Assembly: GCA_030452455.1 (NCBI GenBank)
Contig: JAKDMF010000002.1
Span: 1-33,629, forward strand
Direction: 5' to 3'
DNA length: 33,629 nt
Source: a bacterium
Lineage (GTDB): Bacteria > Patescibacteriota > Saccharimonadia > Saccharimonadales > Saccharimonadaceae
Of the stretch, positions 29,601-33,629 are shown piece by piece; the stretch's first letter is position 1, and every line of letters starts with the position of its first letter. The notes below the pieces were generated by a model. It searched no databases. It had not been told where the DNA came from and saw only the letters and a program-made list of their open reading frames with translations. A program made the translations under genes and the position numbers.

Positions 29601-29624
29601 TGGTACTTCCGGAGATTCGAACTA
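29601..29624 (-). other. tRNA 3'-end-like fragment fused to the rplA stop codon
   Basis: Minus strand TAGTTCGAATCTCCGGAAGTACCA: T-loop-like TTCGAAT and CCA-like end, no D/anticodon arms. Confidence 0.4.
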
Positions 29625-30614
29625 GTTAATTGAGTTTTCTAGTTTTATACCTGGGCCCTGAGTGGCTGACATGCTGATTGATTTAACATATCCACCCTTT
29701 AGGCTGGTTGGCTTCTGAGATTTTAGGCTATCTAGGAAGGCGTTAGCGTTCTGAGTAAGTTTAACGGCGCCAAACGATACCTTACCGATACCGATATGGA
29801 CGATAGCTTGCTTGTCGACGCGGTACTCGACCTTGCCGGCTTTAGCTGCGGTCACAGCATCAGCAACGTTCGGTGCAACTGTACCAGATTTTGGATTTGG
29901 CATCAGGCCACGTGGCCCAAGTAGACGAGCGTATTTACCAAGTTTTGGCATCATCTGAGGTGTAGTAACTAGGATATCGAAATCAAGTTTTTCTTTATCA
30001 AGTTGCTTCAAGAACTCGTCATCACCGACTAGGTCAGCGCCAGCGTCTTTGGCGGCTTTATGCTCCGCTTCAGGTGCAAATACTGCCACGCGGATAGTTT
30101 TACCTGTACCGTTTGGAAGTGTTACGGTCGTGCGAATATTTTGGTCAGCCTGACGTGGATCAACGCCAAGTCGGACGTGCATTTCAACCGTTCCGTCGAA
30201 TTTAGAAGTACTAGTCTTAACTGCAAGATCAGCCGCATCTTCTAGGCTGTATGACTTAGAGGCGTCAACTAGCTTGGCAGCTTCTTGATACTTCTTGCCA
30301 CGACGCTCTAGACGAGGACGAGTAATTGGCTTCGGGCCTTTTTTAACATCTGGTTCGCTACCATCTAGTGGCGTAGTGTCGCCAGCTTCTTTGCGAGCTT
30401 CTTTGTCAGCTTTTTCTTCAGCTTCTTCAATAGCCTTAGCACTTCGCTTGCCGGCCTTGGCAAGTGGCTTTTCCTCAGTCGCCGGCTTCTCAGTTGGTGC
30501 CTCGGCTTTTGGAGCTTCAGCAATCGCAGCCTCGATCTGGGCGATTGTGTTTTTCTCGGTAACTTCTAGACCAAGCTGCTTAGCCTCGGCCAGTAAATCG
30601 GCTTTTTTAGCCAT
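29622..30614 (-). CDS. rplA: 50S ribosomal protein L1 with ~100-aa N-terminal extension
   Basis: L1 core from about [47 protein letters not shown]; extension [34 protein letters not shown].... Confidence 0.95.
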
Positions 30615-30882: not shown

Positions 30883-31692
30883 ATGCGTGCACCTGCACAC
30901 ATCGCCACAGTTTTCGCTGTCGGTATGTCGTTGTCGATGTTGACTGACCCAGTTTCATCGTCACTTACACATAACAATAACAAATCAACATTTAACATCA
31001 GCTTGCCTGGTCCAATGAACCTTGCGAATGTATCGAAAGTTTCAGCGACTCAAGGTGATAAGGCTGATGTCAAAACAGAAAAATCTGAAGAAAAAGAAAA
31101 CAAGCCAGAGCCTAAAAAAGAAGTCATCAAAATTAAAGCTGGTGACTCCCTGGCGGCTATAGCCAAGGCTCATGACACTACTTGGGTGCGACTTTTTAAC
31201 GCCAATAAGTATGTTAAGGATCCAAATATAATTCACCCGAACAAAAAGCTGACAATTCCGAATGAAGGCGATAAATTACCTAATCGCTACAAGAAATTGA
31301 CAGAATCGCAGGTTAAATCAATGCCTCGTCTCAGCTCAAAGCAGATAACTAATGCCACCTCACCAGCTCGAGTCGTCGCTAGGTCTAGTTCGGGCGGAGC
31401 CAACAAATACACGGCCGGTCAATGCACCTGGTATGTTAAAAACAAGCGACCTGATATTGGTAATATGTGGGGTAACGGTGGCTACGGCTGGCTGTCGTCC
31501 GCTCGGAGCGCCGGCTTCTCGACCGGTAGCAAGGCTCGACCAGGTGCCGTCGCTGTCATGAGTGGCCACGTGGCCTACGTCGAATCAGTCTCTGGCGGCA
31601 AGGTTCACCTATCCGAAATGAACTATGGCGGCCGACCAGGCGTGGTTCACAAGCGCGTTGCCTCAGCTGGTAACTTCAAATACATCTATTAG
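30883..31692 (+). CDS. Secreted LysM-CHAP peptidoglycan hydrolase
   Basis: N-terminal signal-like segment; LysM IKAGDSLAAIAKAHDTTWVRLFNANKYVKDPNIIHPNKKLTIP; CHAP AGQCTWYVKNKRPD...GHVAYVESV. Strong aaggagg SD. Confidence 0.93.
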   Translation: MRAPAHIATVFAVGMSLSMLTDPVSSSLTHNNNKSTFNISLPGPMNLANVSKVSATQGDKADVKTEKSEEKENKPEPKKEVIKIKAGDSLAAIAKAHDTTWVRLFNANKYVKDPNIIHPNKKLTIPNEGDKLPNRYKKLTESQVKSMPRLSSKQITNATSPARVVARSSSGGANKYTAGQCTWYVKNKRPDIGNMWGNGGYGWLSSARSAGFSTGSKARPGAVAVMSGHVAYVESVSGGKVHLSEMNYGGRPGVVHKRVASAGNFKYIY

Positions 31693-31831: not shown

Positions 31832-31860
31832 TTGACTTATTTCATATTAAATGCTATAAT
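31832..31860 (+). promoter_or_regulatory. Near-consensus sigma70 promoter of the repeat-protein gene
   Basis: TTGACT (31832-31837) - 17 nt - TATAAT (31855-31860). Confidence 0.85.
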
Positions 31861-31913: not shown

Positions 31914-33629
31914 ATGTTAGAAAACATTAGACCGGACGTGACACTACATCATGAGGCTATGTCGACTCAAGAGGTCGTCGCTCAGAAAACTCAGCTACAG
32001 CCTGAGCTAGGTAGTCGTGCCCTCAAGCTTGTCGAGATCGAACGACAGGAGCAGGAGCGCCAACGTAATATTAGCCAAAACGCCAATCGGATTAAGAAAA
32101 GATTCGGTGAAACTTTTGTTAAGGGTGAGAAACTTCAAGATGGCGGCTACGCTGGCGGCGCAGCTCGCGAATTGCTGGCGGACTACATGGAAAAGTCGAA
32201 CTTCTCGGATGAATTAAAGCGTCTTATCCCCAACAAACACGGCGCTTTAGATACACTTCGTGATAACCAAGACTATATACGACACCAGCTAGCGGAGCTC
32301 TATGCCGGCAATGAAGCGGTAGAAAAAGACGTACCACAGGATCCATACGAGTTGGCTCAGATTGCCAGCTATGAGCTGACCGGTCCGTTTAATAGTGTCG
32401 ATGAGTTTATTGATCGAAAAAATGATTTTCGTTCGCACGAAGTTCTGTGTACTTTTAATAGCCCTCAGGATAGGCTCGACTATTACCATATTATGTGGCT
32501 CCGCCATGATAGTGCAGATAGCACCTTGCCGGCTGATGAGCTGACCGAAGAAAATCTGAATGAGCCATGGAAAAATCATTTACGTCAAACTGGCCGATAT
32601 GATGAAACTACTAATAAGTACGATCTAGCCGACCTGTCACCTACTCGTGAGGACCCTTACGGCGTATCCAGTATGTCAGTTCAGGTCAGTCGCACGGGCA
32701 ACCATGTATCTGTTAAAAATCGTTACAATCATACGGTTGGAAGCCCGGACAGTACCCACAAAAACGACCTCGACAATCTAGTACCTGGCTTGCGTCTAGC
32801 TACCTATCATAAAGTTGATCGCGACGACCTGATGTATGAAGATTTAGAGCTTAGTCTCCAGGAGGGCTACGTACTAGACAACGACAGTGGTATTCATAGG
32901 TATTTGGTAGAGCACAACAATTTCTACCTCGGTGACTATGAGTATGTTAAAAACGGTGAATTAACCACTATCGATCGTGGTAAATACGATATGTTATCGC
33001 CTAAACTGTATCTCAAAAAAGATACCAGCGGAGAGGCTATCACCGTGGCCTACGACGAAGATATTCGCACAGAGTTTGAGGTGCTAGATAGCGGCGCTAA
33101 AAAGGTAGACCTGTATATAGATAAGCAGTTGCAGTCGACCTATGTCTACGCATACGGGGATGATCAGCCGCCGAAAATTGAGCTAAAGGTGCATAAGTAT
33201 GATCTTGTAAGTAGCAACCCAGCCCTAACTAGCCTAACCATCGCCGAAGGTGCCTCGCCCAGCCTTATTACAGACAACCCAGCCCTAACTAACCTAACCA
33301 TCGCCGAAGGAGCCTCGACCGGCGGTATTGTAGACAACCCAGCCCTAACTAACCTAACCATCGCCGAAGGTGCCTCGACCCGCTATATTGTAAACAACCT
33401 AGCCCTAACTAATCTAACCATCGCCGAGGGTGCAACGACCGATGGTATTGAAAACAACCCAGCCCTAACTAACCTAACCATCGCCGAAGGTGCCTCGACC
33501 GGCTATATTCAAGACAACCCAGCGCTAACTAACCTAACCATCGCCGAAGGTGCCTCGGTCAGTTCTATTCGATTCAACCTAGCCCTAACTAACCTAACCA
33601 TCGCCGAAGGTGCTTCGACCGTTGGTATT
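31914..33629 (+). CDS. Orphan modular repeat protein, 3'-truncated by the window
   Basis: ATG at 31914; 572 codons open to the window end with no stop. Missing from the ORF track presumably because no stop is reached. Translation MLENIRPDVTLHHEAMSTQEVV...SVQVSRTGNHVSVKNRYNHTVGSPDST...YDLVSSNPALTSLTIAEGAS.... Confidence 0.88.
   Translation, partial: MLENIRPDVTLHHEAMSTQEVVAQKTQLQPELGSRALKLVEIERQEQERQRNISQNANRIKKRFGETFVKGEKLQDGGYAGGAARELLADYMEKSNFSDELKRLIPNKHGALDTLRDNQDYIRHQLAELYAGNEAVEKDVPQDPYELAQIASYELTGPFNSVDEFIDRKNDFRSHEVLCTFNSPQDRLDYYHIMWLRHDSADSTLPADELTEENLNEPWKNHLRQTGRYDETTNKYDLADLSPTREDPYGVSSMSVQVSRTGNHVSVKNRYNHTVGSPDSTHKNDLDNLVPGLRLATYHKVDRDDLMYEDLELSLQEGYVLDNDSGIHRYLVEHNNFYLGDYEYVKNGELTTIDRGKYDMLSPKLYLKKDTSGEAITVAYDEDIRTEFEVLDSGAKKVDLYIDKQLQSTYVYAYGDDQPPKIELKVHKYDLVSSNPALTSLTIAEGASPSLITDNPALTNLTIAEGASTGGIVDNPALTNLTIAEGASTRYIVNNLALTNLTIAEGATTDGIENNPALTNLTIAEGASTGYIQDNPALTNLTIAEGASVSSIRFNLALTNLTIAEGASTVGI
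33216..33629 (+). repeat. Tandem array of 60-bp modules (7 seen, last truncated), 20 aa each
   Basis: Starts at 33216, 33276, 33336, 33396, 33456, 33516, 33576; framework aacccagccctaactaacctaaccatcgccgaaggtgcctcgacc plus a variable 15-nt segment around att. Confidence 0.97.

What the first reader, a model, noticed from the sequence alone, without database searches (positions are those of the whole stretch)
33216..33629. Array of near-identical 60-bp coding modules with a four-residue hypervariable window
Seen directly: seven consecutive modules of exactly 60 bp encode NPALTNLTIAEGAST-x-x-I-x-x. The first 15 codons are nearly identical at DNA level between copies, including third positions, with about ten scattered single-base changes. 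Changes are concentrated around a fixed ATT (Ile) codon: (P)SL-I-TD, GG-I-VD, RY-I-VN, DG-I-EN, GY-I-QD, (V)SS-I-RF, VG-I-.... Most changes there alter the amino acid. The spacing (LxxLxIxxG...IxxN) fits a 20-residue LRR-like or beta-solenoid coil. The variable residues flank the second hydrophobic position, not the LxxLxL strand that varies in classical LRR receptors. Inference: this is a recombinationally expanded or homogenised scaffold displaying a string of variable surface residues, loosely like TALE RVDs or variable lymphocyte receptors. It could be a recognition, adhesion or host-interaction protein, or a diversity system. The array continues past the window, so its length is unknown.
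Basis: partly seen in the sequence, partly recalled or inferred. Interest (0 to 1): 0.88.

Follow-up and report, generated by a model that had tools for sequence, protein, structure and literature searches.

The report
Near-identical LRR-like array, hypervariable stripe
A tiny host-dependent bacterium carries a gene whose end is a string of nearly identical 20-amino-acid coils that differ almost only at four neighbouring residues, and the same pattern recurs in phage relatives sharing its unnamed front domain, so it looks like a binding surface kept uniform in scaffold but pushed to vary in specificity.

Summary
In detail: seven exact 60-bp units (33216-33629) end gene 31914-33629+, which runs off the contig. 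Fifteen codons are nearly fixed; change is concentrated at codons 16, 17, 19 and 20 around an invariant Ile. Third positions of codons 17, 19 and 20 never change; pN/pS is about 2.6 there and 0.46 elsewhere (suggestive; few codons). Residues 1-430 are an unnamed conserved domain with invariant CT, RxDxYGxS and SxKNRYNHxV motifs and no Pfam, NCBIfam or PDB-fold match. It recurs in other Saccharimonadia-type genera, a Clostridiales MAG, 56 of 184 genomes of one reduced-genome Alphaproteobacteria family, and inside ~3,500-residue viral proteins, one with a PBECR5 nuclease. In most members read it is followed by a solenoid array, mostly BspA-type LRR (Pfam LRR_5); the window unit is best read as a shortened 20-residue version. 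Two viral arrays are independently homogenised and vary at matching positions. AlphaFold2 gives a confident two-strand-per-coil solenoid with the stripe on the second strand. Best reading: an intracellular or injected recognition protein with a unit-duplicated, diversifying binding surface. New variant of a known kind, plus an uncharacterised domain family.

The parts
31832..31860 (+). promoter-like site TTGACT-17-TATAAT with extended TG, 53 bp before the ATG
   Evidence: consensus scan, (11 of 12 matches); not evidence of function by itself
31914..33629 (+). the gene: 572 codons seen, open at the contig end; no Pfam, NCBIfam or PADLOC family reaches a cut-off
31914..33059 (+). conserved N-terminal domain (residues 1-382); invariant C179-T180, R187, R245xDxYGxS252, Q257, S266xKNRYNHxV275, D279xT281; helical N-terminal part and mixed alpha/beta core
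   Evidence: alignment A5 of 16 relatives; models (pLDDT 84-86); no PDB fold match
33060..33215 (+). beta-rich linker or cap between N-domain and array (residues 383-434)
   Evidence: predicted strands 384-390, 396-402, 405-413, 421-426
33216..33629 (+). array of seven 60-bp units (unit starts 33216, 33276, 33336, 33396, 33456, 33516, 33576), last one cut by the contig end
   Evidence: model pLDDT 91-98 with two strands per coil
33261..33275 (+). first hypervariable window (codons 16-20 of unit 1: S L I T D); the others follow every 60 bp (33321, 33381, 33441, 33501, 33561, 33621)

Best explanation
The gene encodes a non-secreted or injected recognition protein. A conserved N-terminal effector or adaptor domain (activity unknown) is fused to a C-terminal LRR-like solenoid of the BspA lineage, shortened to 20 residues per coil. 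Unit duplication and recombination keep the 60-bp scaffold nearly uniform. Selection for altered binding changes residues 16, 17, 19 and 20 of each coil, which stack into one stripe on or beside the second strand. Shown: the array, the codon pattern, the domain conservation, the recurrent fusion, and recurrence of the variable positions in independent arrays. Predicted: the fold. Inferred: that the stripe is exposed and binds a changing partner, and that the protein acts in conflict or host interaction.
For: Array and codon pattern. N-domain relatives with 41-50% identity: G012 has 8 diverged coils and G105 has 3 coils of 60 bp. G105 units 1 and 2 differ mainly at codons 15-20, four of these by replacement. 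Distant members carry LRR_5 arrays: L048 1.9e-11, L034 6e-45, L059 1.9e-88. A profile comparison links window-type coils to those arrays, E 7.7e-5, probability 62%, in the expected register with a two-residue deletion. Viral arrays L059 (81% unit identity) and L030 (88%) vary most around the matching positions 16, 17, 20, 21 of a 22-residue unit. The model gives two strands per coil, 14-19 being the second. Best PDB neighbours are 20-residue bacterial effector LRRs SspH1 and IpaH (E 0.05-0.3). Conflict link: L059 also holds PBECR5, the class described as polyvalent proteins in PMC5512222. In the Alphaproteobacteria family 56 of 184 genomes have the domain, up to 7 matches each.
Against: pN/pS above 1 rests on four codons in seven units; a codon bootstrap includes zero (5-95% -0.07 to 0.72). 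The window array reaches no Pfam LRR cut-off. The Foldseek hits are not significant. One ortholog (G111) has a different C-terminus without repeats. Viral members L040-L042 lack an obvious array. No partner, activity or localisation is known.
Confidence: 0.55

Rival explanations
1. Neutral or structural filler: a young tandem expansion in which codons 16-20 are simply tolerant, solvent-exposed positions, with no selected binding role.
For: Few units, and the bootstrap of pN-pS includes zero. Diverged LRR_5 arrays in relatives also vary at exposed positions, as any LRR does.
Against: At tolerant sites synonymous and replacement changes should rise together. Instead third positions of codons 17, 19 and 20 are frozen while 1st and 2nd positions vary widely (17:1 versus 6:6, p 0.009). 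pN exceeds pS at the matching positions in two viral arrays as well.
Confidence: 0.25
2. Surface adhesin or host-contact protein of the epibiotic bacterium, comparable in role to BspA of oral Bacteroidota.
For: The coil lineage is BspA-type LRR. Saccharibacteria live attached to host bacteria (general knowledge). The upstream gene 30883-31692 reads as a LysM-CHAP cell-wall protein (sequence).
Against: No signal peptide, lipobox or membrane segment is visible in the protein or its orthologs (sequence). The N-domain also sits inside phage polyvalent-type proteins, which act inside cells.
Confidence: 0.12
3. A programmed diversification system (diversity-generating retroelement or cassette shuffling) creates the variable codons.
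For: Variation is sharply localised. Retroelement diversification is known in Patescibacteria (general knowledge).
Against: No RVT_1 match in the genome, which is however 86% complete. All four bases appear at variable sites, without adenine bias. No second copy or template of the unit elsewhere in the assembly.
Confidence: 0.04

Closest known systems
BspA-type leucine-rich repeat (Pfam PF13306, LRR_5)
   Same: LxxLxI strand, second hydrophobic position, N before the next coil; LRR_5 arrays follow the same N-domain in viral and Clostridiales members, and similar coils in Alphaproteobacteria members
   Different: 20 residues instead of 22 or more, no LP or IGxxF signature, does not reach the Pfam cut-off, near-identical units
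20-residue LRRs of secreted bacterial effectors (SspH1, IpaH, YopM)
   Same: 20-residue coil (general knowledge) and best structural neighbours
   Different: E-values not significant; different consensus; the variable stripe lies away from the LxxLxI strand; no E3 ligase domain seen
Fungal HNWD NLR sensors with high internal conservation (het-d, het-e; PMC12222747)
   Same: works alike: repeats kept near-identical by concerted evolution with hypervariable, diversifying sites on the binding face
   Different: WD40 propeller in a fungal NLR; no homology; no NLR ATPase here
Phage and conjugative-element polyvalent proteins (PMC5512222)
   Same: the N-domain plus LRR module occurs inside ~3,500-residue viral proteins, one with PBECR5
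   Different: the window gene is a stand-alone chromosomal protein; the paper's main text does not mention LRRs
TALE repeats and lamprey VLRs
   Same: a repeated scaffold displaying a few variable residues
   Different: TALE is 33-35-residue helical DNA binding; VLR is assembled somatically and varies on the LxxLxL strand (general knowledge)

Membership tests
BspA-type LRR (Pfam LRR_5) | matches the curated LRR_5 profile above cut-off | tested here: not met
   window array has no LRR_5 hit; relatives sharing the N-domain do
BspA-type LRR (Pfam LRR_5) | homology of the coil to LRR_5 coils | tested here: inconclusive
   hhalign E 7.7e-5 but probability 62% over 28 columns, in the expected register
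BspA-type LRR (Pfam LRR_5) | solenoid with a stacked strand per coil | tested here: met
   AlphaFold2 pLDDT 91-98, regular strands every 20 residues; a prediction, not a solved structure
Effector-type 20-residue LRR (YopM/IpaH/SspH) | significant structural or sequence match | tested here: not met
   best Foldseek E 0.055; no LRR sequence match in PDB
Phage polyvalent protein | several conflict domains in one large protein of a mobile element | tested here: not met
   window gene is chromosomal with one N-domain; met only by relatives such as L059
Diversity-generating retroelement target | reverse transcriptase plus adenine-specific variation from a template repeat | tested here: not met
   no RVT_1 in the 86%-complete assembly; no adenine bias
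Surface adhesin | signal peptide or anchor | tested here: inconclusive
   none visible in the sequence; no predictor was run and the C-terminus is missing
NLR-type sensor with high internal conservation | NACHT/NB-ARC ATPase domain before the repeats | tested here: not met
   no such Pfam domain

The most novel reading that the evidence does not exclude
A widespread, unnamed bacterial and phage protein family in which a conserved, possibly catalytic domain (invariant Cys, Arg, Asp, Gln, Lys, Asn, His) is aimed by solenoid arrays whose specificity evolves by unit duplication plus positive selection on one stripe: a prokaryotic counterpart of high-internal-conservation immune sensors, used in conflict by phages, epibionts and reduced-genome gut bacteria.
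Probability: 0.25. Interest if true: 0.8.

Novelty: new variant of a known kind. Interest (0 to 1): 0.55.

Why it matters
If true, it shows that a repeat scaffold under concerted evolution with a selected hypervariable stripe, known from fungal immune receptors, also arises in bacteria and phages on an LRR-type coil. It also exposes a deeply conserved domain with no name in Pfam or NCBIfam and no known fold, shared by Saccharimonadia-type bacteria, reduced-genome gut bacteria and giant viral proteins. The variable residues could be read as a specificity code once one partner is known.

Tried and rejected
Single-sequence scan of genome contigs found no relatives; the profile scan did. No relatives in INPHARED phages or PLSDB plasmids by tblastn. 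PDB sequence searches gave only chance hits. PADLOC: nothing for the window protein. N-domain fold search: no match below E 3. Exact unit DNA in viral contigs: none. Weak hits of the coil profile in other genomes of the family were read: several are LysM/CHAP or translation proteins, L023 is an LRR-like pilin-type protein, L025 and L026 are other repeat proteins; none shows the N-domain. No shared neighbour gene was apparent at the orthologs, judged from ORF maps only. Similarity between units does not fall with distance along the L059 array, so no simple neighbour-duplication series. Diversity-generating retroelement, TALE and VLR membership rejected as listed.

Full report
CHECK OF THE OBSERVATION. 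Seven in-frame 60-bp units start at 33216 and run to the contig end at 33629. They close an open reading frame that starts at 31914. Units are 85% identical on average. Per-base difference is 0.078 in codons 1-15 and 0.39 in codons 16-20. A scan test for clustering of amino-acid changes gives p = 0.0006. Third positions of codons 17, 19 and 20 are T, A and C in every copy, while first and second positions show two to four bases. Minimal changes at positions 1+2 versus 3 are 17:1 in the four variable codons and 6:6 elsewhere (Fisher p 0.009); Nei-Gojobori-type pN and pS are 0.60 and 0.23 against 0.055 and 0.118. The codon bootstrap of pN minus pS still includes zero, so selection is suggestive, not proven. 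No further copy lies in the 673-kb, 55-contig assembly.

THE GENE AND ITS RELATIVES. The protein has no Pfam, NCBIfam or PADLOC family above cut-off. Its first 430 residues find three orthologs in 394 genomes of the same family, one of them in a record titled Candidatus Saccharibacteria (L043); two others are in records titled Nomurabacteria. The lineage of the window as Saccharimonadia-type Patescibacteria is inferred from this. G012 carries eight diverged coils of the same kind and ends in a short basic tail. G105 carries three coils of 60 bp, the first two 83% identical, which differ at codons 2 and 15-20. G111 has another C-terminus without repeats; L046 resembles it and is frameshifted. 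The gene is rare and patchy: 4 of 394 family genomes, only the window in 290 genomes across the phylum. No shared neighbour genes were apparent from ORF maps, which fits horizontal movement.

THE WIDER FAMILY. A profile of the N-domain reaches 16 IMG/VR loci, a Clostridiales and an Alphaproteobacteria MAG. In the family of the latter, 56 of 184 genomes of about 1 Mb hold it, up to seven matches each, some of which are pieces of one gene. Alignment of 16 members shows invariant C179-T180, R187, R245xDxYGxS, Q257, SxKNRYNHxV and DxT, a pattern that would fit an active site; this is inference. In most members read the domain is followed by a solenoid: LRR_5 arrays (L048 1.9e-11, L034 6e-45, L059 1.9e-88) or, in several Alphaproteobacteria proteins, a different repeat built on DLDFSGIxxLDL-like motifs. 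In many viral members the module sits inside proteins of about 3,100-3,750 residues. L059 also contains PBECR5, which places it with the polyvalent proteins of PMC5512222; that paper's main text does not mention LRRs. Other viral members (L040-L042) are stand-alone proteins of 560-577 residues without an obvious array.

THE COIL. Profile comparison aligns window-type coils with the LRR_5 arrays over 28 columns (E 7.7e-5, probability 62%), with a two-residue deletion between the LxxLxI strand and the second hydrophobic position. In this register window positions 16, 17, 19, 20 correspond to positions 17, 18, 20, 21 of the 22-residue unit; position 18 is conserved (S or F) in the viral arrays, so the match is close but not exact. 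The L059 array (20 units, 81% identity) has its highest entropy at 17, 20 and 21, followed by 12. The L030 array (88% identity) varies most at 16, 17, 20 and 21, again with third positions of codons 16, 17 and 21 frozen, pN/pS 0.33/0.17. The pattern therefore recurs in independently homogenised arrays. AlphaFold2 predicts the array with pLDDT 91-98, strands at unit positions 6-9 and 14-19. Closest solved folds are LRRs of SspH1 and IpaH, E 0.05 to 0.3. The N-domain model (pLDDT 86) has no PDB match.

MECHANISM. I take it as a recognition protein: a conserved N-domain aimed by a solenoid whose coils multiply by recombination while selection changes one stripe. No signal peptide is visible, and phage relatives would deliver the domain into cells, so an intracellular or injected role is more likely than adhesion. 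Partner, activity and localisation are not known.

COMPARISON AND NOVELTY. It works like fungal HNWD sensors, whose WD40 repeats are near-identical through concerted evolution and carry hypervariable, diversifying sites (PMC12222747), without being related to them. By descent the coil most likely belongs to the BspA-type LRR lineage, but the window array fails the LRR_5 cut-off, so I do not file it there. The N-domain family is unnamed in the libraries searched. Literature searches found no report of such arrays in Saccharibacteria or Patescibacteria, judged from titles and abstract starts, within a library that lacks most subscription journals.

Noticed in passing
L059:1390-12129: A 3,579-residue viral protein combines PBECR5 nuclease, the KNRYNH-type N-domain and an LRR_5 array of about 20 homogenised coils.
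   Followed up: partly
G553 family genomes, L070, L071, L074, L077-L087: Reduced-genome gut Alphaproteobacteria carry the N-domain gene as a multicopy family (56 of 184 genomes), some with LRR_5-like coils and some with a different DLDFSGI-type solenoid.
   Followed up: partly
L043 (G111) and L046: In two Saccharimonadia-type relatives the array is replaced by another unknown C-terminal region; L046 is frameshifted inside the N-domain.
   Followed up: no
L048:325-3588: Two tandem paralogs of the N-domain plus LRR gene in a Clostridiales MAG, the second with a degenerate KNRYNH motif (IISRYNH).
   Followed up: no
30883-31692: Upstream gene reads as a LysM plus CHAP cell-wall hydrolase with an N-terminal signal-like stretch; same strand as the array gene.
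   Followed up: no
30383-30427: Short 12-bp tandem repeat in the Ala/Lys/Glu-rich N-terminal extension of the ribosomal protein L1-like gene (29622-30614, minus strand).
   Followed up: no
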